64,000 bases of DNA from a virus. The position numbers were made by a program, and so were the translations under genes. The stretch is taken from IMG/VR virus record IMGVR_UViG_3300043425_001634, positions 1-64,000 of that record; one strand, written 5' to 3'. The notes beneath the pieces are model-generated. The model made no database searches. It was not told the DNA's origin and was given only the letters and a program-made list of their open reading frames with translations. Positions 2,436 to 49,165 of the stretch are shown piece after piece (positions within the stretch are counted from its first letter, which is position 1; each line of letters begins with the position of its first letter).

Positions 2436-2857
2436 TGGATAAATTGCCAATTATTAAAATCAGGCAAACTATACAAGATGGAATGAAAGGCCATCTTGGA
2501 ACTTATCGCTTTGTGACCGGGGAAGTTGCCCCAGCGATCGCAGTATTGAAATCTTACGATCAAGAATACCCTCCCGCTGGCACGTCTACCGAAGGCATCG
2601 AAGTCGTCTTGATGTTTCCCCAAGTCAAAGCGTCAACACTTCTAGGAGGCCATGACTTAAAGCTGACATGGTATTTATTTTTAAAACAGTGGGATTTTAA
2701 TGAATCAACCACAATGGCAGTTCAATCGCTGGTATCAGCGCTAAATGAATTGAATTTTCTTAAAGTAGAAAATATTTTTACAAATCCGTCAAATCGTGGC
2801 AAAAATCAGCCGGAAACTGTTAGAATAGAATTAAGCACTTATAGGTTCGTAGCATGA
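2435..2857 (+). CDS. Putative tail terminator protein
   Basis: A 140-aa product with an alpha/beta arrangement: N-terminal helix, a strand with EVVLMFPQ, a long helix (residues 90-112) and a last strand with RIELSTYRFVA. This size and layout, and the place between the gp10-like gene and the tape measure, fit the tail-terminator (lambda gpU-like) family, which caps the tail tube. It overlaps both neighbours (TAATG upstream, ATGA downstream). There are no catalytic motifs. The call is mainly from position. Confidence 0.45.
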   Translation: MDKLPIIKIRQTIQDGMKGHLGTYRFVTGEVAPAIAVLKSYDQEYPPAGTSTEGIEVVLMFPQVKASTLLGGHDLKLTWYLFLKQWDFNESTTMAVQSLVSALNELNFLKVENIFTNPSNRGKNQPETVRIELSTYRFVA

Positions 2858-5800
2858 GCAATGTAGTAGGGTCGGTCGAATTTGACGTAAGGCTAAATTT
2901 TGATAGTTTTAATCAAGAGTTGAATCGGATTAAAAATCAAAAACTGCCGTGTATTCCTATTTGCATTGAACCACCTAAAAATTTAGCTCAAGATATACAA
3001 AAGCAAGTCAAGCAAGTATCCATACAAGAAAAAAAAGAGCAGACAAAATCCCAGAAAGGGGAAGATCAACAGACCAAAGAAAATATTGAGAAATTAAAAG
3101 AAGCTATAGAAAAAGCGACAGTCGCATTTTCTTCTGTTCGATCTGTCTCAGTTGGAACTCGGTCTACCCAGTCTTCATCGGGCGTAAGAAGTGAGAAGGG
3201 ATTTACTGGAGAAGAGGGTATTATTCTTGGAATAAAGTCTCTTAGGTTAGCGATTGAGCAAACCGCAGTATCGATAGGAGAAGGTATCGCTGTAGCACTT
3301 GAATCAACGGAATCAGTTCTAAGAGAATTGCTGCCTAAAGACAACATATTTAAAGCTGCGGGCAGAATAGTAAATCAAACAGCGGGAAACTTGATATCTG
3401 ATTCGATTACAGGGGGTGGTTCTGGCCCAAATAAAATAGGTGTATTAATTGGAAAAGGAGCAAAATTTGCAAATAATTCACCTGGATCTGAAAAATTCAA
3501 TAAAGACGTTGATACCGTAATACCTGGATTTAGCAAATTATTAAAATACCTTGAGTCATGGGATTCTTCGTCTAATTCTGTGTCAAAAGTAGGCGAGTCT
3601 GAACGTCTTGATGTGGCCATCATTGTTTCTCGGTCGCTAACTGATGCAGCAAACAGGATAGTTGAATCACTTGCAAACACAGAAAAAGAAATTAACTCAT
3701 TAGCTTCTGCACTGTCGAGTATTCCTTCTTTGTCTCTAGAGTCATTATCTCCTCAAAGAAACAACAGTCAAAACCCTTTGCTTATGGCGGCACAAATAGC
3801 AGGGGCGAATGTTGCGGCAGATGAGATAAAGAATATATTCAATCAAATATTTGGTCAGTTTTTCTCTAACGCGGTAAACAACACATCTGGCGTCATCAAA
3901 AATAAGATCCAAGAGGTTTTTGATGGTATCTTCTCAAAAGAGGCAAAAGAAGATAACTCCGTCATGGGCGCAATTAAAAATATTTCTGACGGATTATTTG
4001 CTGGAATTTCAGAAGAATCAGATGATTCTTCTATTGTTGTTCATCCTAATTTCAGTGAAAGCTATTCATTGATCTCTTATTTTCAAGAAATCACGCAAGT
4101 ATCAGATGATCTTGCAAGAAATCTACTGAAGTTAAATGAATCTATTATTGTAGTAAATGGCGCAAAAGAAGTTGATTCTTTTGGCGTAGCGACACAAGTA
4201 AATTATAAAAGCATAATGGAGGAAGGTGAAGCTTTTGTAGAAGAAAGACAGCGACATTATAATGAAATAAAAAATCAATCTGTTGACAATATTGATATAT
4301 GCCGCATCCATGAATTGACAGACAGTGGATACAATATAAAGCAAGGTCTAAGAAAAGCAAAAAAAAGCGATAATTCGTTACCCAAAGAAGAGCAATTGCT
4401 ATCATCTGGCAGTGAGTTCTATCAACGTTATATAGAAATCTTAAGAAAAATAGGCCAGTACGATACTTTAATCGTTAAAAAGTTAAGGGGAATAGATAAA
4501 GAAATTGATCAAGAAAGTAGTAATAAAATCTCTCAAATAGAATCTTTTACGGGTCAAAAAATATTACCGCAAAAAAAATCAGGCCAAAACATCGCTCAAG
4601 GGATAGCTGTTGGGATTGAAGATGGTAATGATTTACTAAAAGAAAGTGCAACTGCTGTATTTAATATTATAGATAAAACTATCAGAGACAAGTTTGATAT
4701 CAATTCACCGTCGGGTTGGGGAAAAATCGTCGGAGAAAATATAATAAAAGGTATATTAGAAGGTCTTAGAACCAACGATCTAGAAATGACCTTAAAAAAT
4801 TCTATAGGTGGAATTATTAATAGTGTAGATACAGGAATAGGAGGAGAAACACTTAACAACACAATAAGAGAATTATTGGGAATCTCCGCAGAAAAAATAC
4901 TTAGCGAAAACAAAGAAAGCCTTGACGATTTAGCTAAACAGGTTTACGAGTATGTATTAAGTCAAGACATGGATGGCGTTAGATCCAACTTCTTAAGATT
5001 TTTTAGTGGATCTTTTATTAATAATTCCCAAATAATGCAGGGAGATGGTCGAGTCATAGGCAATAAGGGCGGAATGGGAGAAGTTGCCGCAAGTTCCGCC
5101 GCTGGAGCAACGGAGAATGTGCTAGGAACCGATTCGGGCTTACAGTCGGAGATAGACAATCTTTTGTCAAGAAACAAAGGAGTGCTAAAAAGCGTAAGCA
5201 CTTTAATGGAAGTCGTCAGTTCTCTTTCTTCAATGGATTTAGGGAAAGAAGTTTCTCGTGATGTTATTGATGTTTTCAGAGACATACTGAGCGGAAAAAC
5301 GATAAAAGACAGTTTAAGTAGTAGCGAAATACTTCAAGAAGTAGCCGACATTTTAAAGCAAGCACAGCCAACAAATGAAGATGGAGTTAGGGAAAATTTA
5401 AAAAAACATTTACTAAAATCCCTAGAAGGTGCCAATGCAATCAGCCAGTCCTCTTTAGGGGATGATCACTTTATTTCTGTTTGGCTAAAGGCTTTTAATG
5501 ATACGTTTAACAGAACAGAAGAAACAGAGCGAGAGGATGGTCTGCCAAGCCTTGAAAATATATTATCAGAAGAACGTCCGGTTCATGTGAATCGATTTGA
5601 TGCCTGGAAAGAAAAGGCTAAAGAATATTTAATGAAAGCATCCCGGTATGCAAAAGCAGCAGCAAAAACATATTTTGATCAAACAGAATATCAAGGGCAC
5701 TTATTTAGTCTTTTCTTGGACGCAGCAGAAACTGTAAATAGCGAAATGCAAGGAATCTTTAATAGAGACGCATTTGCCAAAATGCCCGGTATTGAAGCTA

Positions 5801-8800
5801 AAATTCAACAACTGGAATCCGCCGTAGAAGAGCTAAAAAGACAAAAGGAAGTGTTGGAACAAGAGCAAAAAGAAATTGTTGACAAGATAAATGAATTGGA
5901 TGCAGCAAGAGACCAAATAATTGATTTCACGGCAGAAAAAGTAAAAGAATTAACAGAGCAATTAAATAATTATGCTTCAGATCCAATGGGAAATGCGGCA
6001 TCTCAACTGAAGTCACAAATAGAAGAAATTAATCAGGACGAATCGAATAAACTGCAAGAAATATTAGAAGAAAGGCAGCAGTTAATTGGGGGATTGAGTC
6101 AGGTTGAGCTAAATATTGCCAATATCTCAAGCGAAGAATCTCAACAAGAAAGCCGACTGAAAGATCAGTATAAAAGAAAAGAAAAGCAGGAAAATAGACA
6201 GGAAAATCCCTTTAACGCTGAAGCCTCTTATGAAGAAACCAGAAGAATAGAAAATGTATTTCAAGAACGGATACAACAATTTGACAATCTATTTCCTGGG
6301 GTAAAAGATTTCATGGTTCAAGGATTAGCTTTTCTTGGATCTATGGAAACTTTTCAGTCTATGCTTGGTCAGGCAGTTGATTTTGTTCAAGAAAGTTTAG
6401 AACAAGTGCTGGGTTTGCTGACAAACAGAGGCGTATTAAAAGGATTAACCTCTACAGGACAAGAATATCAAGACATTCAAACTTTTCTTGACAAGCAAAT
6501 TAATACTTTTAGCTTAGATCGCGCAACAACTGAATCGGGATTTAAGGGATTTTACGCTTCTGCTCAAGGAACAAGCATGGAAGGAGATCCCACTAAAAAA
6601 ATATTTGAAGGTATAACGCAAGCTTCTCGTGCATACAACTTGACCAGGGATCAACAAGAAGGGACTTTTTTAGCCTTAACTCAAATGATGTCACGAGGCA
6701 CTATTTCAATGGAAGAATTAAGGGGGCAGTTGTCCGAAAGACTTCCAGGAGCAATGGCGATCGCAGCAAGAGCGATGCAAATGACTCAAGGCGAACTCGT
6801 TGAGTTAGTCTCTAGTGGACAACTTGCAGCAAATATCTTTTTGCCTAAATTTGCACAGCAATTAAAAAATGAAACGGCTAATGCGGCGAAATCAGCCACA
6901 GGATCGCTTGCGTCAATTAGACAGGAATACGAAAATATTGTATTTAACTTTAGAGTAAAAGTCGTTGAAACCATAGAACCAGGATTAAAAGTTTTAGGCC
7001 GAGGATTTATTTTCTTGATAAATACAGCAAAAAAACTTGCTCCTTTAGTTGCTTTTATGGCAGGTACTATATTTTTAGGATCACTGGAAGGAATAGCCGG
7101 ATTCCTAAAAATTATCGCTGGACATATAGTAAGAATAGTTGGACTGGCGCCACTAATAGCTGCTGGTGCAGCAGGAATTGCAACACCATTTGTTGCTTTG
7201 TTGCCTCTTATGGCTCAAGTTTTTGAAATAAAGCAGTGGATAGGCTTATTCACGCTATATATTCCGATTATCACCACATTAATAGATGGTCTTAATACTA
7301 AAATTGAATTATTTGGTGTCACGCTGTATCAATCAGAATCAGATAAAGCATTAGAAAGAATAACTAATTCTGTTCAAGCGCTAAAACAAAGCTTAAACGA
7401 ATCAACTGAATCAGCAAATAAATTAGCAAATTCTACAGCAAATATTAAGTCAGTCAGCCCAATTGACGACAAATTAAGATGGGACAATAAAAATTCCCAA
7501 GAAGAAATACTTAAAGGAGAAATGAGTGCCATCAAAGACTTTGCCTACATTGGTGGTGCATTTGCTTTTGACCTTGTTCGGAGCGACTATCATGCCTATG
7601 ATCAGGAGATCCGCAGAGTTGCTCAAATCAAGAGAGGACAAGACGAAGCTTTATTTAGAGCAGGCAAAGCCGATGTTCCTACACAAAAAATACTTCGGTC
7701 TTCTCCAGAATTTATTGATGAATGGTATTACACCAGTCACGGAATAAATAATGTAGAAAAACCTAAATCAATGCGAATATACGATCGCATGACAAGTTTG
7801 ACTACATTTGGTAAATTTAATGATTTTAATCAACTCAACAGAAAATTATATAAAGGATTTGATAAATTTTTAACAAATTTTTTGAAAACGTTAGGAGGCC
7901 TGCCTGCTAAAGTTGCCGCTAGAAATGCGGCAATGGAAACTGGTGCATCCATTGCCGGAAGTGCTGTGAACGGGATTGGAATAGCAAGAACGGGAAGCTT
8001 TAGCCGTGGAGCTAGTCGCCTTGTAGGAAATATCCCAGGCATCAACTTGTTAGGTCGCACAGCGGCTTCTGTCGCTAAAGCGTTTGCTCCGCTTGGCAAT
8101 GCTGCCACTAAATTGTCTTCTAAGTTTCTTTTAGCTGGAGCATCTGTCGTTGGGCCGTTAGCCGATATAGCATTAATGGCAAAATCATTTGCTGTGGCTG
8201 CTCTTCCAACTTTAAGTGCTGTTCTAGTAGGCATGGTTCAATTTGCTGTGATCATAGGATTGGTTGCAGCCGCTGCACTTGCTTTCAACAAGACCGTAAG
8301 TTGGATGAAGGGTCAAGGAGGCAAAACTATTACCTGGACTCAAGTGCAAGAAGAATGGCGAATTAATGATAATGAAAAATTCAATAAACAATCAAACGTA
8401 ACTGTTGACGAAATATTAAAAACGATTGGTCAGTATCAAGGCAATGTGGGAATTTTAGCTGAAGCTGAAAACAAAAATCGCCAAATTCAATCGTTAACAG
8501 TTGAATCCGGTCGTCTTTCTGATGCTGATCCGCGCAAAGAAATCGTCAAAGGAGAGATTGCTCGATTAAATAGCACCAAAGCATTGGTTGACGAAAGAAT
8601 AAACAATCTCAGATCTGCCAACTTAGATGCAATAAAGCAATTAGAATCGCAGTTAGAAACCGAAAAAAATCCTCAACTTATTTCTAGTTTACAGACTCAG
8701 TTGAATCTAGTTAAAAAAGCTCAGACGATGCTAGAAGTAGCAGAAGCGGAAGCTTCCAATATGTCAGCAGTTAAAAGCTTTGCTGTGGCGTTGCGTAGTT

Positions 8801-11800
8801 TAAACAATCAGTTTGATTCAATCGCTGCAAGATTTGAAAATTATGCAACAAATCTTGATATTGATTTATCAGAAAAAGAAATTGCTGAATTTAGTAATCC
8901 TAATGCAAGATTTCTGTCTTCTCGTTTAGACGTAGACAGAAAAACTCAAGAGCAAGAAATAGCGCAGCAAAGATTGAGTGAGGAACAACAATCTGCAAAC
9001 TTAGCAAAAGAACAAATTACTTCACAAGCTGAGTTTGGCAACATTGAGCGCATCTTAAGAGCAGAAATAGGGGATCTTGGAATTGACGCAAGTGGAGCTA
9101 AAACTTTTGATGAAATGATTCAGTCTCTTTCTTCCGATCAAATTTCTGCGCTTAGGGAAAAGTTCACAGATGAAGCTATTAAACAAAATTTAGAATTAGT
9201 TGCATCTTACAGGGAAAAGCAATCACAAATACTAAGCGGAGAACAAGAATTAGCTGCAAAAACTATTGAATTAAAACGAGCTAAAGAAGCAGCCGAAATT
9301 GAAATTATTGAAAACACTTATGATCAAGCAGCAAATAAACTTAAGCTGGCAGCTACAGATGAAGAAGTGTTGATTCAAAGACAGTTGTTGAATCAAGAAA
9401 TTAATGAGCAAGAGTCTCAGTTAAGAATGAGGCAATTGGAAGAGGTTAACGCAGAAAAATCCATTAAACTGACAGAAAATAAAATCAAACAACTACAAGG
9501 ATCTCACAAAAAAGGAATTATCTCCACTGATGTCTACGCTGAAAAAATGCAAGGATTAGAACAGCAATTAGCCGATGAGCAAAAGCAATTAATAGAATCC
9601 AAAGTCGCCACACAAGAGGCTGTGCAGCAAAAAGTATTAGATGAAATGGAAAAAGCATTGCAAATAGCGACTGCCTTGATGGAGCAAAGACAAAATCAAC
9701 AAACTGCTATCATCAAAAAAGCACAGCTAGACAGAAAAATGACAGAATCTCAGGCTAATGAAGCATTGGCTAAATTAGCATCTGATCGAGCAAAGGCAGA
9801 AGTTACCATCAAAGAAAAACAGTTGATGGAACTAAGAAAGGCTCGCACAAAAGGTTATATTACGGAATCAGAGTTTGCCAGTCGGGAAAGAGATTTAGTT
9901 ACCGAACTTAGTGCCGCAAAGACTCAAGCATTAGAGGAAGAATTGGCGTTAAGGGAAGCGATCAAAGAAAGAATCCTTGACGAATTAGAACGCGCTAATG
10001 CTATGGCAGATGCCGCCATCAACAAAAAATCGTCAACTGCCAAACAAAATATTATTCAAACTCAAATTACGGAATATCAAACAAAAGGAGATCGCGTTGA
10101 TGCTCTTGCTAATCAGGATCAGCTAAAAGCGGACAGACAAGCGTTAGAGAAACAGCAAAAGCTTAAAGTTCAAGCTGTTGAAGCCAACAAGAAAATGCTC
10201 AATGATAATATCTTGAGCCAAGAGGAATATACGGATCGGCAAATTGCCGCAGAGCAAGAACTTGCCGATATCAAAATTCAGATACTGGAAAACACATTAG
10301 CCCAACAGAGAGAAGCTGCTAACTCAGCTACAGCGGAAATTGAACGTGCCGTTAGCGAGTCTCAGTCAAAAATTGATAAGTTGCAATCTCAGCGATCCGT
10401 CTCGATAAAAGAAGATCAGCTAAAAAAAGGATCATCTTCGCGTCGATTGGCCGCAACTACAGCGGAGATCGCTCAATCCGAATCAGAATTAATCGCAGTA
10501 CAAGAAAGACTTAAGGCGACAGAAAAGCAAGTCAGAGAAATCCAAGATGCCTACAACGAAGGAACCATTTCCCAGCAGACTTACTTTGAACAAATGACTG
10601 CGGCTGAACAATCTCTGGCTGAGTTAAAAGTGCAAAATTTTGAACAGCAAATTAGTCTTCAGGAGCAAATTGCTAACGCTGCATTGGAAGAGCTAGATCG
10701 GGTGATCCAAAAATCTGAGCAAGCTTTAGATAAAATCAATACCGATAGTCAGATTGAAATTCGCCAAACTGAACTTGGGCAAGTTCAGTCTTTAGGCGAA
10801 GAAAAAGCAGGGCAAAATGCCGAGGTTTCTACAAATAAATTAGAAAAAGAACAAACACTGGAGCGGATTCGCCAAGCGCAGATGGAATTGGCTGAAATAA
10901 GTCGTTTGAGAAGAGAAGAAATTATAGATGCGGAAACAGCAAATGATCATATTGCGGAAACCGAAACTAAGCTATCTCAATTAAAGCTTGACTTAATTGA
11001 GAATGAGATGAATGCCAAACAACTGGCTGCTGATGCGGCGATCGCTGAATTAGAAAAGGTCATACAAAAATCTGAGCAAGCTTTAGATAAAATCAATACC
11101 GATAGTCAGATTGAAATTCGCCAAACTGAACTTGGGCAAATTCAGTCTTTAGGCAAAGAAAAAGCAGGGCAAAATGCCGAGGTTTCTACAAATAAATTAG
11201 AAAAAGAACAAACACTGGAGCGGATTCGCCAAGCGCAGATGGAATTGGCTGAAATAAGTCGTTTGAGAAGAGAAGGAATTATAGATGCGGAAACAGCAAA
11301 TGATCATATTGCGGAAACCGAAACTAAGCTATCTCAATTAAAGCTTGACTTAATTGAGAATGAGATGAATGCCAGACAACTGGCTGCTGATGCGGCGATC
11401 ACTGAATTAGAAAAGGTCATACAAAAATCAGAACAAGCTTTAGAAAAAATAAATATTGAAGGCCAAACAAAAATTCGCCAAACTGAACTTGGGCAAATTC
11501 AGTCTTTAGGCGAAGAAAAAGCAGGGCAAAATGCCGAGGTTTCTACAAATAAACTAGAAAAAGAACAAACGCTGGAGCGGATTCGCCAAGCGCAGATGGA
11601 ATTGGCTGAAATTAAGCGTTTACAAGAACAGGGCATAGTAGACGCGGCAACGGCCAGTGAACGAATCACAGAAAGTGAAATTAAGCTATCTCAATTAAAG
11701 CTTGACTTAATTGAAAATGAGATGAATGCCAGACAACTGGCTGCTGATGCGGCGATCGCTGAATTAGAAAGAGTCCAGCAAGCCGCTAATTCAGCACTAG

Positions 11801-13386
11801 AAATTGCTGAAGCAAAACAACAACTAAGCATACAACAGGCTGCACTAAGTGGAATAGATTCTCAGTCGATCGAAGCATTAGAACGTCAAGCTAGAAGCGC
11901 TGAATTAGCGTTAGAGCAACAAATGCAGCAAGAGCGGTTGAATCTTGCCAAACAAAATCAGCGAGAGTTAAATAGACTAAAATCCACAGGATTGATTACC
12001 GAATTTGATTATCAGCAACGAAAAATAGAAGCAGAGAAAGAAATGCTGGAAATAGAAAAAGGATTGACTGAAACCCGGAAGCAGATCAAACAAGCAGAAA
12101 CGGACGAAATCATCCGACAAATTGATCTGCAAATAGCGGCTGAACAGCAAAGAATGAATGAGTTGTCTGCCGCAGTAGATGCAGAAAAAGCACTAAAAGA
12201 TCACAAGACTCAAATGCTTGATTTTGACAAAACCTTACTTGATGCACAGGCGGGACTGCAAAAAGCAAGGTTTGATGCAGAGATTAGTCAAATTCAGATT
12301 AATCTCAATGAAACCGAAGATCCAATAGCAAAGGCCAGCCTTCAAGAGCAATTGAATGCAGCAAAAATTGCTCAACTTAAAGAGGAGTATCAGATTCAGC
12401 TTCAGCAATTAGAAATTGAGACTCAGCGCAATCAGTTGGCGGCTGAACAAATGACAATGGAAGCTGAAATCAACAAAATGAAGGCAGAGTCGGCTGTCTT
12501 AGAAGCTGAAATGAATTTGTCCAAGGCCAAAACAACTAAAGATGCAGAGCAGATAGCATTGGCGCAATCTCAATTAAATATTGCACAAAAGCAAGTCGCG
12601 GCATCCGATCTGGGAATACAAGCCGCCAAGCGCAATATGGAGTTACAAGCAAAAACCTCAGAGATTGCCAAGCAAACACTGGACGTGCAACATCAAACAG
12701 CAATGGCAGAGGCAGAAGCGGCTGCAAGAGCGGATCAACGGGCTGCCGCATATCAAGGAATGGAGCAAAGTGCTAATAACGCTGCCGACGCGGTAAGTAG
12801 AGCCAGTAATGCAGAAGCTAACGCATCAGCCAGAAGCGGAAGGGAATATGCTCAATTAACAGATCGAACTGAGCGCGTTGATGGCATAGAAGCTGAATTT
12901 CAACAAAAATGCGAAGGTAGTGGCGCTTTATGGGGGCCGGGTGTAATCGAAAGAAATCGAGGCAAGGGAATAAGCGCAAACCCAATGTCTTTGCGAATCC
13001 CCTTACCCGGAGGTGGCACTATTGTTCCCTCATGGGAAGTTGATCCAAAGACAGTTGTAGACGGGGCAAGAGCAATGGGTGGTCCAGTTGATGTCAATAA
13101 AACTTACTTGGTTGGAGAAAAAGGACCAGAATTATTTATTCCTTCCGCCAGCGGGCAAATTATCCCAAATGGTAAGCCCGCACCCGTAAGTGCCAATGCG
13201 ACCCCCGGCGTAGGCATGGTAAATAATTCAAATAAAGAATTGTCTATTCGCTTAGACGCTTTGGGCGATCGCATTATGCGATTAGCAAACTCTCCTCGCA
13301 ATATCTCTGTTTCCACCGCGACACCGATCGCAGATACGTTAAGTTTGATTAACAAAGTCTCCGCAACTAAATATCCTGATGTATGA
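2854..13386 (+). CDS. Tail tape measure protein, 3510 aa
   Basis: Sets tail length and takes part in DNA ejection in long-tailed phages. Residues 1-1100 are helical and Ser-rich. The TP901-type tape-measure core lies at about residues 1230-1370 (MSRGTISMEELRGQLSER, then the GELVELVSSG region). Hydrophobic, membrane-seeking segments follow at about 1390-1480 and 1690-1810. A very long coiled-coil rod runs from about 1830 to 3300, including three near-identical 119-aa repeats. The C-terminal end has the familiar GGPVDVNKTYLVGEKGPELF motif. The start overlaps the previous stop (ATGA). It is far larger than usual (lambda gpH has about 850 aa), implying a very long tail. Unlike most phages, no tail chaperone gene precedes it; those genes lie near 31 kb on the other strand. 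Confidence 0.95.
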   Translation: MSNVVGSVEFDVRLNFDSFNQELNRIKNQKLPCIPICIEPPKNLAQDIQKQVKQVSIQEKKEQTKSQKGEDQQTKENIEKLKEAIEKATVAFSSVRSVSVGTRSTQSSSGVRSEKGFTGEEGIILGIKSLRLAIEQTAVSIGEGIAVALESTESVLRELLPKDNIFKAAGRIVNQTAGNLISDSITGGGSGPNKIGVLIGKGAKFANNSPGSEKFNKDVDTVIPGFSKLLKYLESWDSSSNSVSKVGESERLDVAIIVSRSLTDAANRIVESLANTEKEINSLASALSSIPSLSLESLSPQRNNSQNPLLMAAQIAGANVAADEIKNIFNQIFGQFFSNAVNNTSGVIKNKIQEVFDGIFSKEAKEDNSVMGAIKNISDGLFAGISEESDDSSIVVHPNFSESYSLISYFQEITQVSDDLARNLLKLNESIIVVNGAKEVDSFGVATQVNYKSIMEEGEAFVEERQRHYNEIKNQSVDNIDICRIHELTDSGYNIKQGLRKAKKSDNSLPKEEQLLSSGSEFYQRYIEILRKIGQYDTLIVKKLRGIDKEIDQESSNKISQIESFTGQKILPQKKSGQNIAQGIAVGIEDGNDLLKESATAVFNIIDKTIRDKFDINSPSGWGKIVGENIIKGILEGLRTNDLEMTLKNSIGGIINSVDTGIGGETLNNTIRELLGISAEKILSENKESLDDLAKQVYEYVLSQDMDGVRSNFLRFFSGSFINNSQIMQGDGRVIGNKGGMGEVAASSAAGATENVLGTDSGLQSEIDNLLSRNKGVLKSVSTLMEVVSSLSSMDLGKEVSRDVIDVFRDILSGKTIKDSLSSSEILQEVADILKQAQPTNEDGVRENLKKHLLKSLEGANAISQSSLGDDHFISVWLKAFNDTFNRTEETEREDGLPSLENILSEERPVHVNRFDAWKEKAKEYLMKASRYAKAAAKTYFDQTEYQGHLFSLFLDAAETVNSEMQGIFNRDAFAKMPGIEAKIQQLESAVEELKRQKEVLEQEQKEIVDKINELDAARDQIIDFTAEKVKELTEQLNNYASDPMGNAASQLKSQIEEINQDESNKLQEILEERQQLIGGLSQVELNIANISSEESQQESRLKDQYKRKEKQENRQENPFNAEASYEETRRIENVFQERIQQFDNLFPGVKDFMVQGLAFLGSMETFQSMLGQAVDFVQESLEQVLGLLTNRGVLKGLTSTGQEYQDIQTFLDKQINTFSLDRATTESGFKGFYASAQGTSMEGDPTKKIFEGITQASRAYNLTRDQQEGTFLALTQMMSRGTISMEELRGQLSERLPGAMAIAARAMQMTQGELVELVSSGQLAANIFLPKFAQQLKNETANAAKSATGSLASIRQEYENIVFNFRVKVVETIEPGLKVLGRGFIFLINTAKKLAPLVAFMAGTIFLGSLEGIAGFLKIIAGHIVRIVGLAPLIAAGAAGIATPFVALLPLMAQVFEIKQWIGLFTLYIPIITTLIDGLNTKIELFGVTLYQSESDKALERITNSVQALKQSLNESTESANKLANSTANIKSVSPIDDKLRWDNKNSQEEILKGEMSAIKDFAYIGGAFAFDLVRSDYHAYDQEIRRVAQIKRGQDEALFRAGKADVPTQKILRSSPEFIDEWYYTSHGINNVEKPKSMRIYDRMTSLTTFGKFNDFNQLNRKLYKGFDKFLTNFLKTLGGLPAKVAARNAAMETGASIAGSAVNGIGIARTGSFSRGASRLVGNIPGINLLGRTAASVAKAFAPLGNAATKLSSKFLLAGASVVGPLADIALMAKSFAVAALPTLSAVLVGMVQFAVIIGLVAAAALAFNKTVSWMKGQGGKTITWTQVQEEWRINDNEKFNKQSNVTVDEILKTIGQYQGNVGILAEAENKNRQIQSLTVESGRLSDADPRKEIVKGEIARLNSTKALVDERINNLRSANLDAIKQLESQLETEKNPQLISSLQTQLNLVKKAQTMLEVAEAEASNMSAVKSFAVALRSLNNQFDSIAARFENYATNLDIDLSEKEIAEFSNPNARFLSSRLDVDRKTQEQEIAQQRLSEEQQSANLAKEQITSQAEFGNIERILRAEIGDLGIDASGAKTFDEMIQSLSSDQISALREKFTDEAIKQNLELVASYREKQSQILSGEQELAAKTIELKRAKEAAEIEIIENTYDQAANKLKLAATDEEVLIQRQLLNQEINEQESQLRMRQLEEVNAEKSIKLTENKIKQLQGSHKKGIISTDVYAEKMQGLEQQLADEQKQLIESKVATQEAVQQKVLDEMEKALQIATALMEQRQNQQTAIIKKAQLDRKMTESQANEALAKLASDRAKAEVTIKEKQLMELRKARTKGYITESEFASRERDLVTELSAAKTQALEEELALREAIKERILDELERANAMADAAINKKSSTAKQNIIQTQITEYQTKGDRVDALANQDQLKADRQALEKQQKLKVQAVEANKKMLNDNILSQEEYTDRQIAAEQELADIKIQILENTLAQQREAANSATAEIERAVSESQSKIDKLQSQRSVSIKEDQLKKGSSSRRLAATTAEIAQSESELIAVQERLKATEKQVREIQDAYNEGTISQQTYFEQMTAAEQSLAELKVQNFEQQISLQEQIANAALEELDRVIQKSEQALDKINTDSQIEIRQTELGQVQSLGEEKAGQNAEVSTNKLEKEQTLERIRQAQMELAEISRLRREEIIDAETANDHIAETETKLSQLKLDLIENEMNAKQLAADAAIAELEKVIQKSEQALDKINTDSQIEIRQTELGQIQSLGKEKAGQNAEVSTNKLEKEQTLERIRQAQMELAEISRLRREGIIDAETANDHIAETETKLSQLKLDLIENEMNARQLAADAAITELEKVIQKSEQALEKINIEGQTKIRQTELGQIQSLGEEKAGQNAEVSTNKLEKEQTLERIRQAQMELAEIKRLQEQGIVDAATASERITESEIKLSQLKLDLIENEMNARQLAADAAIAELERVQQAANSALEIAEAKQQLSIQQAALSGIDSQSIEALERQARSAELALEQQMQQERLNLAKQNQRELNRLKSTGLITEFDYQQRKIEAEKEMLEIEKGLTETRKQIKQAETDEIIRQIDLQIAAEQQRMNELSAAVDAEKALKDHKTQMLDFDKTLLDAQAGLQKARFDAEISQIQINLNETEDPIAKASLQEQLNAAKIAQLKEEYQIQLQQLEIETQRNQLAAEQMTMEAEINKMKAESAVLEAEMNLSKAKTTKDAEQIALAQSQLNIAQKQVAASDLGIQAAKRNMELQAKTSEIAKQTLDVQHQTAMAEAEAAARADQRAAAYQGMEQSANNAADAVSRASNAEANASARSGREYAQLTDRTERVDGIEAEFQQKCEGSGALWGPGVIERNRGKGISANPMSLRIPLPGGGTIVPSWEVDPKTVVDGARAMGGPVDVNKTYLVGEKGPELFIPSASGQIIPNGKPAPVSANATPGVGMVNNSNKELSIRLDALGDRIMRLANSPRNISVSTATPIADTLSLINKVSATKYPDV
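10690..11760 (+). repeat. Three 357-bp direct repeats inside the tape measure gene
   Basis: The coding DNA repeats with a period of 357 bp (119 codons): the same TCTGAGC/TCAGAAC position falls at 10714, 11071 and 11428. The first two copies are almost identical in DNA, the third has diverged in its second half. Each unit encodes a heptad-rich helix beginning near VIQKSEQAL. The period is a whole number of codons, so gain or loss of copies would change tail length without a frameshift. Confidence 0.9.
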
Positions 13387-13397
13387 CAAAAATCAAT

Positions 13398-13514
13398 GGG
13401 GCAGTAGCGCAGCTAGGAAGCGTACCGGCACCTTCTTGGTGTTGTTGGCCAAGCAGTTCAAATCTGCAATCGGTTCAATGCCGGTGGTCGCGGGTTCAAA
13501 TCCCGTCTGCTCCT
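13398..13514 (+). tRNA. tRNA-like element with a 43-nt insert in the anticodon loop
   Basis: The acceptor (GGGGCAG/CTGCTCC, one G-U pair), D arm (GCGC/GCGT), anticodon stem (CCGGC 13425-13429 with GCCGG 13480-13484), 5-nt variable loop and T arm (GCGGG, loop TTCAAAT, CCCGT) fit a normal tRNA. The loop closed by the anticodon stem is 50 nt, not 7. Inside lies a second T-arm-like hairpin (13453-13467, GCAG/CTGC around TTCAAAT) and a CACC/GGTG hairpin. No CCA is encoded. If 13431-13473 were removed the loop would read ATTCAAT, anticodon UCA; this is speculation. It may be a disrupted tRNA, an intron-bearing tRNA or a structural tRNA mimic. It follows the tape measure stop by 11 nt. Confidence 0.55.
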
Positions 13515-13517
13515 CTT

Positions 13518-13593
13518 AAAGCGATCGCGTAATTGGGTAGCGCACCGATATCGCAAGAAAATCGGTAGTATAGGTTCAACTCCTGTTCGCTTT
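13518..13593 (+). tRNA. tRNA-like element with an 11-nt anticodon loop
   Basis: Seven perfect acceptor pairs (AAAGCGA/TCGCTTT), D arm GCGT/GCGC with an AATTGGGTA loop, anticodon stem CCGAT/ATCGG, a 4-nt variable loop and T arm ATAGG/CCTGT around TTCAACT are all in normal register. The anticodon loop has 11 nt (13550-13560) in place of 7, so no anticodon can be assigned safely. No CCA is encoded. A HIP1 octamer spans the acceptor and D arms. The 3' end overlaps the stop codon of the convergent gene at 13592 by two bases. It is probably a tRNA mimic or decayed tRNA. Confidence 0.5.
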
Positions 13594-14293
13594 ATTTTAA
13601 GCCAAAGTGATCAATAAATGCTTTTGCCAAGTATTTTATGTTTACGTTATCGCATAAATTGTCGTGATAGCCTAAAACTGGAATTAAACAAAAATTTTTG
13701 ATTTTGGACTGCCAGTTTAGATAAGAAGTAAATTGAAAGACATTGTTGGCGTTACGAGGCAATAAAGCATTATCTTGAGCGTAGAAAAAAGTCACTTCCT
13801 GATCAAACTCAAAATATTTTGGTTCATAGCTTAAAGATGAATTGATGAAAAAGTCACTTGTTTTTGTTGATTCCTCTGCTTCTTCTTGTGTCATTCCTTC
13901 AAGCATTCTTCGCTGAATAGCTGCCGGTTTTTTTATTTTCAACCATAAATCTTTTGCAATATTTTTTTCTTCTTCAGTTTGTACAAAAAACATAGGCGGA
14001 TCAAAAAGAGCAATTCCTGACACCTCAATTTGATTATTTAAATAAATTCTTGCGATTTCCAATGCAATCATACCACCTATGCAAATGCCCGACAAAAAAT
14101 AAGGAGGTGATTGACTGGTTATTATCTTATCTGCGTAATCAGAAGCGATTGACTCAATTGATAAATTTTGCTGTTCAATTAATTCTTTTGTGGGCTTAAT
14201 CCCTTTAAGAATATACTTGCTGTCAATAAAAGGCGAAATTCCTTGAGCTAAACTTAGCCGTCCGCCCGCATCATGTATAATATTTATATTCAT
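13592..14293 (-). CDS. Thioesterase-like alpha/beta hydrolase with Cys nucleophile
   Basis: A 233-aa product with the fold signature of thioesterase domains from peptide and polyketide synthases: an N-terminal strand followed by HDAGGRLS, a nucleophile elbow GICIGG (residues about 90-95) before a helix, a strand with GIALFDPP giving a likely catalytic Asp, a lid region (about 110-165) and a late His in GYHDNL. The usual Ser in GxSxGG is Cys here. It is the last gene of the minus-strand tail-tip/fibre operon, after the fibre gene. A stand-alone thioesterase in a phage tail cassette is unusual; it could act on host lipids or glycoconjugates or on a host metabolite. The fold is fairly sure, the substrate unknown. 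Confidence 0.7.
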   Translation of the reverse strand: MNINIIHDAGGRLSLAQGISPFIDSKYILKGIKPTKELIEQQNLSIESIASDYADKIITSQSPPYFLSGICIGGMIALEIARIYLNNQIEVSGIALFDPPMFFVQTEEEKNIAKDLWLKIKKPAAIQRRMLEGMTQEEAEESTKTSDFFINSSLSYEPKYFEFDQEVTFFYAQDNALLPRNANNVFQFTSYLNWQSKIKNFCLIPVLGYHDNLCDNVNIKYLAKAFIDHFGLK

Positions 14294-25609: not shown

Positions 25610-25786
25610 TCATCTATAGCGCTGTTTTTTTGCTGATTGTTGGTCAGTTGGTTTTTGACCCTGTAGATTCACAAAAAGCAGCGAGTTAACCGCTCCTGAA
25701 AAACTCCTCAGCCCTAGGGATTTCTGGTAGCTTTCGACCATCTCAGCCACATCATCTCTGATGTATGCTCGCTTAACTGCTTTCAT
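25610..25786 (-). CDS. ParM partner: small DNA-binding adaptor (ParR-like), 58 aa
   Basis: A 58-aa basic product whose ATG overlaps the stop of the actin gene (TAATG). It has the short strand - helix - helix outline of ribbon-helix-helix proteins: MKAVKRAYIRDDVAEMVE, a turn at LGLRS, then FSGAVNSLLFV, and a polar tail. In ParM/StbA systems a small ribbon-helix-helix protein encoded right after the actin binds the centromere and the filament end; size, order and coupling fit that role. The family call is inferred from context and outline. Confidence 0.65.
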   Translation of the reverse strand: MKAVKRAYIRDDVAEMVESYQKSLGLRSFSGAVNSLLFVNLQGQKPTDQQSAKKQRYR

Positions 25787-26793
25787 TAGGCAACCTCACT
25801 CTTAACTGATGATTTTTGGGCGATAATGGCTAATCCCTTAATGTGGGAATTTTGCGGGTCATTGGCTACGATAAAGCCTTTAGATTGTGCGAATTTTCGC
25901 AGGATGTTGGCACCGCCCCCACAGAGAATGATATTGTCGATTTCATCCGCCATTGGTGCCAGATTTTGTAAGGCTGGCTTGATAGCTTTTTCCGCCCATA
26001 AACGTAACCGCTTTTGATAAATCTCACTGATGTTAACCCCGGTAGATCCATACTGGAAATCTCCCATAATCGCCCGTTGCAATAGGTGAATTTTTGCCTC
26101 ACCGCCAATAGCTTTTTTAAGGGATGGATCGGAGGCGATCGCACCCAGTAAGTCAGCGATACCCGCATCCGACACAGACCGTAACTGGGGGATTAGGCTA
26201 CCGTTGGGGGAAAACCCGGTGCTGATGACCGTGCCATGCCCGATGTCCAGAATGGCGTTAGTTGACCCGCGTTCGATCGCACCATCAGTCAGACAGCTAA
26301 CGAGACATCCGCTTGACTCTGGTTTCAGGGTGACGCGCTGAATCACAAGGGTCATGCGATCGCCGTTACGACTGATGACATGGCGGCCCTGGATAGCGGT
26401 ACGGAATTGATCGCCCAATATGCCCGTATCTGGAAGTGATGCCAGAATCTCAGGGATAGTGATGGTTTCACCCTGATATGTGGGGCGAATGGCATTGCAC
26501 ATCAAAATCAGTCCCCAAGTCACTTTGCCCCGGTTTTGCCCCTCTGACACGATCGCTTGGAAACCAGCCGGGGAACTGATAGCCGCCGCTGTTCCCACTG
26601 CAAAAGTCCGACCAATCAGGTCAGAGCGATCGCCGTCATGGTAAGTGATGATTGCCCCGTTGTTGCCCCGGTCATCGCAGGCTTCACTAGGATCCGCTAA
26701 TTCGGCGATATGTGATGGGAAAGTGCTTACCTGAAAGGGATTTAGGGCGATTTTAGAGAATCCGTTGCCGATATCAATGCTGAGAGTGTTCAT
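25786..26793 (-). CDS. parM: ParM/StbA-like actin ATPase for plasmid partition
   Basis: A 335-aa product of the actin/Hsp70 superfamily. It has the phosphate-1 loop SIDIGNGFSK near the N-terminus, the phosphate-2 loop ILDIGHGT (about 190) and the adenosine motif IILCGGGANIL (about 285). Length and spacing match the ParM/StbA-type segregation actins found on cyanobacterial plasmids. It forms filaments that push sister plasmids apart. It is followed by the small DNA-binding partner and preceded by a repeat-rich stretch that may be the centromere. Its presence suggests that the phage can be kept as an extrachromosomal plasmid. Confidence 0.85.
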   Translation of the reverse strand: MNTLSIDIGNGFSKIALNPFQVSTFPSHIAELADPSEACDDRGNNGAIITYHDGDRSDLIGRTFAVGTAAAISSPAGFQAIVSEGQNRGKVTWGLILMCNAIRPTYQGETITIPEILASLPDTGILGDQFRTAIQGRHVISRNGDRMTLVIQRVTLKPESSGCLVSCLTDGAIERGSTNAILDIGHGTVISTGFSPNGSLIPQLRSVSDAGIADLLGAIASDPSLKKAIGGEAKIHLLQRAIMGDFQYGSTGVNISEIYQKRLRLWAEKAIKPALQNLAPMADEIDNIILCGGGANILRKFAQSKGFIVANDPQNSHIKGLAIIAQKSSVKSEVA

Positions 26794-40812: not shown

Positions 40813-40856
40813 CTCATAAGCCCTTGGTCTCGTGTTCAAATCACGCTTGAGCCATA
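40813..40856 (+). other. Partial tRNA-Met 3' half, degenerate copy (att-like)
   Basis: Starts with a CTCATAA loop (Met anticodon CAT), then the 3' anticodon-stem strand, TGGTC, a T arm (TTCAAAT loop) and the 3' acceptor strand ending GAGCCA. There is no 5' half upstream. The sequence equals the copy at 47907-47950 except for two bases; here the T stem has a mismatch. It is followed by a terminator, as at the other copy. A tRNA 3' half is the usual attachment site of tyrosine recombinases. Confidence 0.7.
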
Positions 40857-40968: not shown

Positions 40969-42405
40969 TCAAGGAGCCAACTTAGCTTTTTTCGCTCTTT
41001 TTTTAGAATACCATTCAGCAATTTCAGGCACCCATGCTTGGAAATGCGGCCAAATTAAATCGCAGAGTTTCTGACATTCTAACTGGGCATCTTTTTTCCA
41101 GCGCATATCTAATAAATGCATCAGCGATCGCACATTTAAAGACATGACCCAATGTTGTCGCACATCAAAGGGAATAATCCCTCTAGCGTGTTCTTCCGCT
41201 GCCCCTTCAGAGATCAGTTGTTGATAGCGTTTTGCTGCTTCTAAACACCAAGCTAAATCGCGATCGCGCTGTGCTTGAGTATAGTCATAACGCTTTCCTT
41301 GGCGATCGGTGTAACTGCCCACGGGACGCAGATAAAATACTTCTTCGAGATCGCGTTTTCCTGTCGCCGCATCAACGATCCGATTTCCCGTATAGCGGTT
41401 AGAGTTATGCACCACCATACCATTGGCGACAAAATTATGCCAAGGACCTTCTACTTCTAGGTCATAAGTCATTTCAAATCCCAGGAATTCAACGCTTTTT
41501 ACCTTAATTGGATGCGATCGGAGTTTATTCCCTGGTGATTTCGGTTTAGGTTGCCAATTTTTTGCTTCGAGAATCGGTTGATAATTTTTGGCAAACTCCG
41601 CCTCTTTGTTATTTTTCTGTTCTAGAAACTCTTTATTCCGATAAAGTCCATTGCCTGCCACTGCCATGCCATTACATAAGACCCAGCAATTTTTAATCAT
41701 GTTAATTACCTGACCATTTTCGGCTGTCATTAAACCGACCGCTTCCCCCATTGTTTGCCAGCCGAATGTGGTAAATAAGCGGTGATTGGTCGTACAATCT
41801 AAGGCTTTACCATCTTCTAAAGTTAGGCGATAAACAGGTTGAATCCCTTTAGCCATCACATCCTTAATATGTCCGAACTCAAAAAAGCCAGTGGTTTCAT
41901 TCAGAACCCTTAGCCGCATTTTTTTGATTCGGGTTTTGCCATCACGACGATATTCTCCAGTGGGTTCTCCGTTTCGACCTTGTTTTAATCGTTGGCGAAT
42001 CGCTTTTTTGCCATTCGTCCATAACTCGTAAAGTTCCGCAATTTTGATTTTGCGTAAACTGCCACTAGCATGAACAAATGTCACCTCAGTATTTCCCGCC
42101 AGACACTGCACGTCGAAAGAAATTCCTACGCGGTGAGTTCTAATTTGCTGCATCACACTATGAGGAAAATATCCACAATTAAAAACAATGGCAGGGTGTT
42201 CGCAGCTACCAAAGTGTCCGCGATCGCCTGCCAATAATCTTTTTACAGCAATTTCTCCGCACTTGCTTTCTGATGGCCATTTGTCCAACTTAGATAACCA
42301 CTCATCTATTACATATTCTTCGCTGTAATCCTGGTGCATTGCTGCATAAATAATTTGCTGAGGATTCGCAGCTTTAGATAGCACTTCTACTCGAAATTTT
42401 TCCAT
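40969..42405 (-). CDS. thyX: Flavin-dependent thymidylate synthase ThyX, interrupted by an intein
   Basis: A 478-aa precursor. Residues 1-100 and 335-478 are ThyX: the signature around the active site (QIRTHRVGISFDVQ, then SNRYTG) is split exactly before the conserved Ser by an intein (101-334). The mature enzyme would have about 244 aa, the normal size, and convert dUMP to dTMP with methylenetetrahydrofolate, FAD and NADPH. With the thymidylate kinase at 59.9 kb it would raise dTTP supply during infection. It lies next to the first tRNA-Met half and is divergent from the zinc-protein gene. The C-terminal end is Lys/Ala-rich. Confidence 0.9.
   Translation of the reverse strand: MEKFRVEVLSKAANPQQIIYAAMHQDYSEEYVIDEWLSKLDKWPSESKCGEIAVKRLLAGDRGHFGSCEHPAIVFNCGYFPHSVMQQIRTHRVGISFDVQCLAGNTEVTFVHASGSLRKIKIAELYELWTNGKKAIRQRLKQGRNGEPTGEYRRDGKTRIKKMRLRVLNETTGFFEFGHIKDVMAKGIQPVYRLTLEDGKALDCTTNHRLFTTFGWQTMGEAVGLMTAENGQVINMIKNCWVLCNGMAVAGNGLYRNKEFLEQKNNKEAEFAKNYQPILEAKNWQPKPKSPGNKLRSHPIKVKSVEFLGFEMTYDLEVEGPWHNFVANGMVVHNSNRYTGNRIVDAATGKRDLEEVFYLRPVGSYTDRQGKRYDYTQAQRDRDLAWCLEAAKRYQQLISEGAAEEHARGIIPFDVRQHWVMSLNVRSLMHLLDMRWKKDAQLECQKLCDLIWPHFQAWVPEIAEWYSKKRAKKAKLAP
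41404..42105 (-). mobile_element. Intein in thyX (234 aa)
   Basis: Splicing motifs: the first residue Cys in CLAGNTEV (block A), TxxH in CTTNHRLFT (block B), and the C-terminal end with WHNFVANGMVVHN (block G) followed by Ser as the +1 residue. There is no LAGLIDADG motif; residues 240-285 may be a reduced insert of about 45-60 residues (WVLCNGMAVAGNGLY). It is therefore a mini-intein, probably unable to home. Inserting in the catalytic loop of ThyX is a known preference of cyanobacterial and phage inteins. Confidence 0.85.
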
Positions 42406-47906: not shown

Positions 47907-47950
47907 CTCATAAGCCCTTGGTCGCGTGTTCAAATCACGCCTGAGCCATA
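47907..47950 (+). other. tRNA-Met 3' half, near-perfect copy (probable attP core)
   Basis: CTCATAA anticodon loop, stem strand, T arm GCGTG/CACGC around TTCAAAT, and acceptor strand CTGAGCC plus A. All 3' features of a tRNA-Met are intact and the 5' half is absent. The integrase gene begins 124 nt downstream. Phages that integrate in a tRNA gene carry its 3' part so that the gene is restored after integration. It is a near copy of 40813-40856 in the same direction. Confidence 0.75.
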
Positions 47951-48073: not shown

Positions 48074-49165
48074 ATGTCTAACAACAAGCTTACGATTGAA
48101 AGTATCAATCAAGACCTCAAGGCGGCCAAGATCCGCATCCGCATCTGTACGGTAAAAGAAGGAAATACTTTGTTCTTAAGGGGGACTTTGCCTCCTAAGC
48201 CGGGTAGTGGAAAAGTTGGGGCTTACCAGCAAAGAGTCTCCCTTGGAGTTTTTGCCTCAGAAGTGGGGCTTCAATTTGCAAAAGGAGAAGCAATTAGATT
48301 GGCTGGCCTATTGGATACATATAGATTCTCATGGGAATCTTATCTCCCCGACATTTTCAATGATAGCACAAGTCAACTCAAAAAATGTGGGGAATGGATC
48401 AAATTATTTGAGGAAGATTTTTGGCAAACGGGGACAAGATGCCGAGTTACCTGGAAGGATTACCGCAAGGTTTTCAAGAAGCTTCCTACTAATGAATTAT
48501 TGGTTTACGATCTTGCAAAAAAAATTATTTTAGAGACAAAGCCAAACACGAAAAGCAGAGAACGTACCACGGATAAAATTGCATCACTTTGTGAATTTGC
48601 CGAAATACCCGATGCCTCAAATTTGCGCCGTTACCGGGGTTGCTATTCTCAGAGGGGTAAAAATACGCCTATAGTTGTCCCTGCATATCAAGAAATTCTT
48701 GATTGCGTGGATCATTTCCATAATGACTGGTGGCGAAATGCCTTTTGTTTGCAGGCAGCTTATGGACTCAGAAATCACGAAATTTACCACCTGAATTTTG
48801 ACAAGATGCACCAGGGTCTTCTGATTGTCAACAAAAATACAAAAACTGGCTGGCGGGTAGTCCCCAGTTGCCACCCTGAATGGGTGGAAAAATGGGGACT
48901 CAAAAAATTAACACCGGCGGATATGCCCCAGTCTACCTTGACCGATAATGACTTACTTGGTCGCCAGGTTTGGAAGGCTTACAAGCGATCAAAAGTACCA
49001 TTTTCCCCCTATGCTTTGCGCCACCGATTTGCCTGTGACTGTGCCTTACAAAATAAGCCTGTGGCCTTGGCCGCAAAAGTCATGGGGCACAGCTTAGAAA
49101 CGCATACAAAAATTTACCATGCTTTTCTCAGTCAGGATGACTTGCTGAGTGCATGGTATAAGTAA
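48074..49165 (+). CDS. int: Tyrosine recombinase / integrase
   Basis: A 363-aa product. The C-terminal catalytic domain shows the Arg of box I (AAYGLRNHEIYHL), a Lys-bearing beta-turn (NKNTKTGWR), the box II LRHRFACD with HxxR, MGHSLETHTKIYH with the His/Trp position and the nucleophile Tyr. The N-terminal part (1-150) is an arm- and core-binding region. It has AGGAG and GGGAG ribosome sites. It stands directly after the tRNA-Met half, as usual for integrases that use a tRNA gene. It would integrate and, with the small protein at 49170, excise the phage. Confidence 0.9.
   Translation: MSNNKLTIESINQDLKAAKIRIRICTVKEGNTLFLRGTLPPKPGSGKVGAYQQRVSLGVFASEVGLQFAKGEAIRLAGLLDTYRFSWESYLPDIFNDSTSQLKKCGEWIKLFEEDFWQTGTRCRVTWKDYRKVFKKLPTNELLVYDLAKKIILETKPNTKSRERTTDKIASLCEFAEIPDASNLRRYRGCYSQRGKNTPIVVPAYQEILDCVDHFHNDWWRNAFCLQAAYGLRNHEIYHLNFDKMHQGLLIVNKNTKTGWRVVPSCHPEWVEKWGLKKLTPADMPQSTLTDNDLLGRQVWKAYKRSKVPFSPYALRHRFACDCALQNKPVALAAKVMGHSLETHTKIYHAFLSQDDLLSAWYK

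What the first reader, a model, noticed from the sequence alone, without database searches (positions are those of the whole stretch)
13398..13593. Two adjacent tRNA-shaped elements with enlarged anticodon loops
Both have all arms in exact register and proper T-loops (TTCAAAT, TTCAACT), yet the anticodon loops measure 50 and 11 nt. The first loop holds a second T-arm-like hairpin. Stems are perfectly paired, which suggests selection on the structure. They might be tRNAs with small introns, tRNA mimics that bind host factors or nucleases that cut anticodon loops, or transcription-end structures between convergent genes. For the first, removing 43 nt would leave a UCA anticodon, but the phage uses TGA as a normal stop.
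Basis: partly seen in the sequence, partly recalled or inferred. Interest (0 to 1): 0.72.

Follow-up and report, generated by a model that had tools for sequence, protein, structure and literature searches.

The report
Cyanophage tRNAs with enlarged anticodon loops
A virus of cyanobacteria carries two adjacent genes that fold exactly like transfer RNAs except that the loop which should read the genetic code is far too long; the shape is real, similar misfit tRNAs turn out to be common in other phages, but what these two do is not yet shown.

Summary
Element 1 (13398-13514) and element 2 (13518-13594) are tRNA-derived cloverleaves with all arms paired and tRNA tertiary contacts kept. Their anticodon loops are 50 and 11 nt. 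ARAGORN finds both only when introns are allowed, and finds none in 3.84 Mb of random sequence; Rfam scores element 2 as tRNA (46.5 bits). Function is open. Only three nearly identical genomes carry them. In the two relatives element 2 is unchanged, and element 1 has three changes, one of which breaks a D-stem pair. As encoded neither can decode. A splicing reading is weak: no usual anticodon, and no RNA ligase, RtcB or tRNA-splicing endonuclease in the 91.5-kb record. The best guess is a non-decoding tRNA-like RNA (0.42), ahead of decaying tRNA genes (0.36) and spliced tRNAs (0.13). Following the lead outward gave firmer results: (i) a family of ~40-54-nt inserts between tRNA positions 29 and 30 in many phages, whose removal leaves proper tRNAs of six isotypes; (ii) phage tRNA-like RNAs with two T-arms and strong compensatory changes. 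The window elements belong to neither family by covariance model. tRNA introns in phages were first reported for Lak megaphages (PMC6784885), so this is a new variant of a known kind.

The parts
13398..13514 (+). Element 1: tRNA-like cloverleaf, anticodon loop 50 nt, discriminator T at 13514
   Evidence: intron-allowed ARAGORN SeC(tca) i43; in relatives read as Leu(caa) i45
13398..13404 (+). Element 1 acceptor 5' strand GGGGCAG (pairs 13507-13513 CTGCTCC)
13407..13423 (+). Element 1 D-arm GCGC-AGCTAGGAA-GCGT; 13422 G>A in both relatives breaks C11-G24
13425..13429 (+). Element 1 anticodon stem 5' strand CCGGC (pairs 13480-13484 GCCGG)
13430..13479 (+). Element 1 enlarged anticodon loop, 50 nt
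13453..13467 (+). Extra T-arm-like hairpin GCAG-TTCAAAT-CTGC inside the loop
13490..13506 (+). Element 1 T-arm GCGGG-TTCAAAT-CCCGT
13518..13594 (+). Element 2: tRNA-like cloverleaf, anticodon loop 11 nt, discriminator A at 13594 (overlaps stop codon of the ORF on the other strand)
   Evidence: Rfam RF00005 46.5 bits; ARAGORN Ala(cgc) i4
13550..13560 (+). Element 2 enlarged anticodon loop ATCGCAAGAAA; predicted inner UC-GCAA-GA (GNRA tetraloop)
2854..13386 (+). Upstream gene, 3510-aa tape-measure-like protein, ends 11 nt before element 1
   Evidence: naming by length, coiled-coil repeats and position; inference
13592..14293 (-). Convergent gene with thioesterase domain
   Evidence: PF00975 9.8e-10

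Best explanation
The two elements are tRNA-derived RNA genes of a cyanophage in which the acceptor-T half and the D-T elbow are kept but the anticodon loop has been enlarged, so that as encoded they cannot decode. Most likely they are made from the late transcript that runs out of the tape-measure gene. Host RNase P and RNase Z would trim them and CCA would be added, because those enzymes read the intact acceptor-T half. They would then act as non-decoding tRNA-like RNAs, that is mimics or decoys for a tRNA-binding or tRNA-cutting factor. Shown: the cloverleaves, tertiary contacts, loop sizes, and presence in three genomes. Inferred: transcription, processing, and any mimic role.
For: Two intact cloverleaves side by side, against none in 3.84 Mb of random sequence. 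In both, the only departure from a tRNA is in the anticodon loop; two random insertions both falling in that loop would have a chance of about 1% (inference: 8 of 76 positions, squared). Element 2 has 0 of 77 changes where the genomes differ by 1.5-1.8%. A similar architecture is under selection elsewhere: the double-T-arm element of Aeh1-like Aeromonas phages keeps 150 of 156 pair cells with 7 pairs changed on both sides, one of them in the extra T-arm, and another double-T-arm family has 13 of 19 pairs with compensatory change. No ligase, RtcB or splicing endonuclease in the record speaks against splicing.
Against: Only three genomes, two of them alike in this region. Element 1 changed at 3 of 119 sites, no slower than the genome, and one change breaks a D-stem pair, so there is no direct sign of purifying selection. 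No homologue outside this phage species; distant relatives Cr-LKS4 and CrV-01T have no tRNA at all. Element 1 is not a member of the double-T-arm family (17.7 bits against 62-104 for members and up to 31 for ordinary tRNAs). No expression data.
Confidence: 0.42

Rival explanations
1. Decaying tRNA genes: two tRNAs picked up by the phage lost their anticodon loops through small insertions (element 1 perhaps by recombination with another tRNA, which left an extra T-arm) and are no longer used.
For: Element 1 evolves no slower than the genome and has a broken D-stem pair in both relatives. The elements are confined to one phage species. Chimeric and partial tRNAs are common in phage tRNA arrays. 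This phage carries two other tRNA 3' halves.
Against: All four arms and the tertiary contacts are intact in both elements, and both depart from a tRNA only in the anticodon loop.
Confidence: 0.36
2. Intron-bearing tRNAs: an insert is removed and a working tRNA results (element 1 UCA or CAA, element 2 CGC).
For: ARAGORN models both this way. Phage tRNA introns are published for Lak phages, one intron itself holding a possible tRNA (PMC6784885). A conserved 40-54-nt insert family at 29/30 in other phages leaves perfect tRNAs when removed.
Against: Covariance model R2 of that insert family finds nothing at these elements. The best anticodon differs between 98.5%-identical relatives (SeC-tca against Leu-caa). 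UCA would read TGA, a normal stop here. A 4-nt intron has no precedent known to me. No RNA ligase, RtcB or tRNA_int_endo match in the record, though the record may be incomplete and a host enzyme could serve.
Confidence: 0.13
3. Attachment-site scar: tRNA pieces left by integration and excision at tRNA genes.
For: The phage has a tyrosine integrase and two 43-bp tRNA-Met(CAU) 3' halves, one next to it; two T-arms in tandem is what an insertion at the anticodon loop followed by deletion would leave.
Against: Both elements have full 5' halves and lie 34 kb from the integrase; the two T-arms of element 1 differ much in stem sequence; it does not explain element 2.
Confidence: 0.05
4. Transcription-end structure between convergent genes.
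For: The elements fill the 205-nt gap between a + and a - gene.
Against: No terminator-like site in 13100-13900; a T-loop and D-loop register is not needed for termination.
Confidence: 0.04

Closest known systems
Intron-containing tRNAs of Lak megaphages (PMC6784885)
   Same: Phage tRNA cloverleaves with an insert in the anticodon region; one Lak intron was predicted to encode a tRNA itself, like the extra T-arm here.
   Different: Different phages and hosts; Lak introns are highly conserved between cohorts and leave an assignable anticodon; neither is shown here.
Phage tRNA inserts between positions 29 and 30 (family assembled here, model R2: Aeromonas Aeh1-like, Vibrio QD01/KVP40-like, Synechococcus BUCT-ZZ01, metagenomic phages)
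   Same: 40-54-nt insert in an otherwise canonical phage tRNA; often two or three such genes side by side.
   Different: Insert sits in the anticodon stem at 29/30 and has a conserved hairpin plus NCNGCAA; window elements do not match R2.
Double-T-arm tRNA-like RNAs of phage tRNA arrays (family assembled here, model R3) and element a of Aeh1-like phages
   Same: Acceptor, D-arm, a middle hairpin, an extra T-arm, then the T-arm.
   Different: Element 1 scores 17.7 bits with R3, inside the range of ordinary tRNAs (up to 31).
T4 stable RNAs rnaC and rnaD (species 1 and 2)
   Same: Stable tRNA-cluster RNAs of ~140 and 119 nt; rnaC has a T-arm.
   Different: No cloverleaf with an enlarged anticodon loop in T4 rnaC or rnaD.
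YrlA (bacterial Y RNA with tRNA-mimic module) and tmRNA
   Same: tRNA-like modules; weak covariance hits (26.5 bits and 19.8 bits).
   Different: Both far below the curated cut-offs (69 and 47 bits).

Membership tests
canonical tRNA (RF00005) | 7/4/5/5-bp cloverleaf, T-loop TTCRANY, D-loop GG, 15-48 pair | tested here: met
   both elements; Rfam 46.5 bits for element 2; element 1 below cut-off because of the insert
canonical tRNA (RF00005) | 7-nt anticodon loop with U33 | tested here: not met
   loops 50 and 11 nt; in the same strict scan 450 cloverleaves in 146 loci have 7 nt
phage tRNA intron of Lak type | insert whose removal leaves a working tRNA; splicing seen | tested here: inconclusive
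   removal gives UCA or CAA for element 1; no RNA data
29/30 phage tRNA insert family (R2) | match to covariance model of the insert | tested here: not met
   no hit at 13398-13594 at E<=10; none at E<=0.001 in G000, G002, G003
double-T-arm tRNA-like family (R3) | model score well above ordinary tRNAs | tested here: not met
   17.7 bits; members 62-104, ordinary tRNAs up to 31
YrlA (RF02553) | gathering score 69 bits | tested here: not met
   26.5 bits
tmRNA (RF00023) | gathering score 47 bits, tag peptide | tested here: not met
   19.8 bits; ARAGORN tmRNA search of 13300-13700 finds nothing
group I intron | catalytic core of about 200 nt or more | tested here: not met
   insert is 43-50 nt; no Rfam intron hit in the window
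protein-spliced (BHB) tRNA intron | tRNA splicing endonuclease and ligase | tested here: not met
   PF01974, PF01139, PF09511, PF09414 absent from the 91.5-kb record; record may be incomplete, and a host could supply enzymes

The most novel reading that the evidence does not exclude
Phages carry several unnamed families of tRNA genes with remodelled anticodon arms (inserts at 29/30, double T-arms, enlarged loops) that are real, selected RNAs; the two cyanophage elements are an independent example in which the RNA works without decoding, or is spliced by an enzyme not yet known in phages.
Probability: 0.35. Interest if true: 0.78.

Novelty: new variant of a known kind. Interest (0 to 1): 0.52.

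Why it matters
Why phages carry tRNAs is an open question, and tRNA finders with bacterial settings pass over or mislabel genes like these (Aeromonas phage Ahp1 has one marked 'tRNA-Pseudo'; PX29 has one annotated as a two-piece tRNA-Leu). If the inserts are spliced, some phages have a tRNA-splicing route with no known bacterial enzyme. If they are not, the RNAs are tRNA mimics that could be tested against tRNA-cutting defences. Either case can be tested in culturable phages such as Aeh1, KVP40-like vibriophages and BUCT-ZZ01.

Tried and rejected
T4 rnaC/rnaD as the same architecture: folded and scanned, not alike. Membership of element 1 in the 29/30 insert family, suggested by a shared 9-mer TCTGCAATC: rejected by covariance model. 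Membership in the double-T-arm family: rejected by score. YrlA and tmRNA: sub-threshold. Terminator: none. RNA ligase as a marker of intron-bearing phages: not enriched, 8 of 10 against 7 of 9 in other tRNA-carrying phages, one of which has a weak R2 hit of its own. Homologues by DNA pattern or blastn in viral contigs, phages, plasmids and GTDB genomes: only two nearly identical contigs, apart from shared tRNA T-arm ends. MCP-based search for prophages in genomes: none. Intron-allowed ARAGORN with long inserts joins neighbouring tRNAs in arrays and misreads long variable arms, so only strict-scan or family-supported cases are used. Model R1 was sequence-only, included element 1, and was not used. 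One query (with fetches 65-68) hit the wrong stretch of Aeh1 because of reversed coordinates and was replaced.

Full report
WHAT IS THERE. The record is a 91.5-kb IMG/VR virus contig. Its capsid protein is 31% identical to those of Cylindrospermopsis phages Cr-LKS4 and CrV-01T, and the window holds 41 HIP1 sites, so it is most likely a cyanophage. The 205-nt gap between a 3510-aa tape-measure-like gene (+) and a thioesterase-domain gene (-) is filled by the two elements. Both are complete class-I cloverleaves in exact register, including the nucleotides that make the tRNA elbow (T8, A14, G18G19, 15-48 pair, T54-A58). The anticodon loops are 50 and 11 nt. Bacterial-mode ARAGORN misses both. With introns allowed it makes exactly these two calls in 64 kb and none in 3.84 Mb of Markov-1 sequence. 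Rfam calls element 2 a tRNA at 46.5 bits. So they are tRNA-derived.

VARIATION. Two other contigs carry the locus. Genome-wide they differ from the window by 1.5-1.8%. Element 2: 0 of 77 sites. Element 1: 3 of 119 sites. 13422 G>A turns the D-stem pair C11-G24 into C-A. 13443 T>C turns a G-U into a G-C pair in the alternative middle arm of the minimum-energy fold. 13479 T>G is the last loop base. That is too little to prove or exclude selection. More distant relatives (Cr-LKS4, CrV-01T) have no tRNA.

SPLICING OR NOT. Removing 43 nt leaves UCA, which reads a codon used here as a stop (7 of 35 ORFs); in the relatives the best model is CAA with a 45-nt insert. Element 2 would need a 4-nt intron. 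No RtcB, T4-type RNA ligase or tRNA-splicing endonuclease family is found in the record. So splicing is possible but not favoured. In element 2 the extra bases fold as UC-GCAA-GA, a GNRA tetraloop. A non-decoding RNA fits both elements; so does decay.

LOOKING OUTWARD. A scan of viral contigs for two T-arm motifs 12-42 nt apart gave at least 120 loci. A strict scan of 146 loci, most of them chosen for such motifs, found 450 cloverleaves with a 7-nt loop and a handful with loops of 43-99 nt, several with a T-arm inside: element 1, L099, L112, L121, L076, L113. One contig proved to be Aeromonas phage Aeh1 (L101), which has three odd tRNA-like genes in a row. These are conserved in Aeromonas phages PX29, Ah1, avDM12-TAAL, phiAS5 and phiWae14; Vibrio phage QD01 and Synechococcus phage BUCT-ZZ01 share the same kind of insert.

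FAMILY 1, INSERTS AT 29/30. In BUCT-ZZ01, Ahp1, Aeh1-like phages, vibriophages and metagenomic phages a 40-54-nt insert lies between tRNA positions 29 and 30. Taking it out leaves a 5-bp anticodon stem, a 7-nt loop, U33 and A37: Asn(GUU), Met(CAU), Gly(UCC), Ser(GCU), Arg(UCG), Val(CAC). In the ten sequences that fit the model cleanly, 96 of 100 pair cells form; stem positions 27-30 and hairpin positions 1 and 4 change on both sides. L160 and L171 have 8-9-nt loops and the Aeromonas set has one T-T mismatch. The insert has a hairpin with a TGNNAA loop followed by NCNGCAA. Model R2 separates this family from everything else, and neither window element matches. A second intron class, 65-92 nt, sits between positions 33 and 34 in L076 and L113. 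RNA ligases occur in 8 of 10 phages with 29/30 inserts but also in 7 of 9 tRNA-carrying controls, so they say little.

FAMILY 2, DOUBLE T-ARMS. Twelve phage RNAs of 85-97 nt have acceptor, D-like arm, a middle hairpin, a full extra T-arm, a linker (often TTGGCAA) and the T-arm; 13 of 19 predicted pairs show compensatory change. Element a of Aeh1-like phages has the same plan, with 150 of 156 cells paired and 7 compensatory pairs, one in the extra T-arm. These are selected RNAs of unknown function. By model R3 element 1 (17.7 bits) is not a member.

VERDICT. Its class is known in outline: Lak phage tRNA introns, called enigmatic in PMC6784885; and 22-49-nt tRNA inserts in cyanobacteria reported as group I introns in PMC5733544, though at that size a group I intron is implausible. 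For the two window elements I lean to non-decoding tRNA-like RNAs over relics, with low confidence. One known role of phage tRNAs is to evade tRNA-cutting defences by anticodon-loop changes (PMC10264068), which would be the first function to test.

Noticed in passing
L156 (Synechococcus phage BUCT-ZZ01) 849-961 and 979-1092; L157 486-598; L101, L150-L155, L160, L164, L171, L186, L194, L204, L217: Family of ~40-54-nt inserts between tRNA positions 29 and 30 whose removal leaves canonical tRNAs of six isotypes, with compensatory changes; looks like a conserved phage tRNA mini-intron family.
   Followed up: partly
L049, L054, L077, L086, L092, L106, L114, L119, L120, L130, L132, L140, L191 (for example L120:480-569): Conserved 85-97-nt five-armed tRNA-like RNA with two T-arms in phage tRNA arrays, strong compensatory changes; model R3 scores 62-104 bits, ordinary tRNAs up to 31.
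   Followed up: partly
L076 3871-4022, 5005-5158; L113 tRNA calls c[5772,5936] and c[3925,4065]: Phage tRNAs Gly(UCC), Val(AAC), Ser(GCU) with 65-92-nt inserts between positions 33 and 34 that share a plan: small 5' hairpin with loop like AGTAAA, A-rich linker, long stem enclosing a T-arm-like hairpin. The L113 phage encodes RtcB, the L076 phage two RNA ligases.
   Followed up: partly
window 40813-40855 and 47907-47949: Two 43-bp direct repeats (41 identical) equal to the 3' half of a tRNA-Met(CAU), one just upstream of the tyrosine integrase gene (48074-49165): probable attachment-site sequences.
   Followed up: partly
L056 (for example 5644-5731), L129, L048: Several tRNA-like genes in one phage with the same Leu-like body (AGTCAGGTGGCGGAATTGGTAGACGC...CAGGTTCGAATCCTGTCCTGACT) but quite different middle parts.
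   Followed up: no
window 40969-42405: ThyX thymidylate synthase gene interrupted by an intein (PF02511 and PF14890).
   Followed up: no
window 25786-26793: Partition protein (phrog_691) in a phage that also has a tyrosine integrase; possible phage-plasmid life style.
   Followed up: no
L132 5417-5668, L119 776-1034: Rfam hits to cyanobacterial/permuted tmRNA inside phage tRNA arrays, well above cut-off.
   Followed up: no
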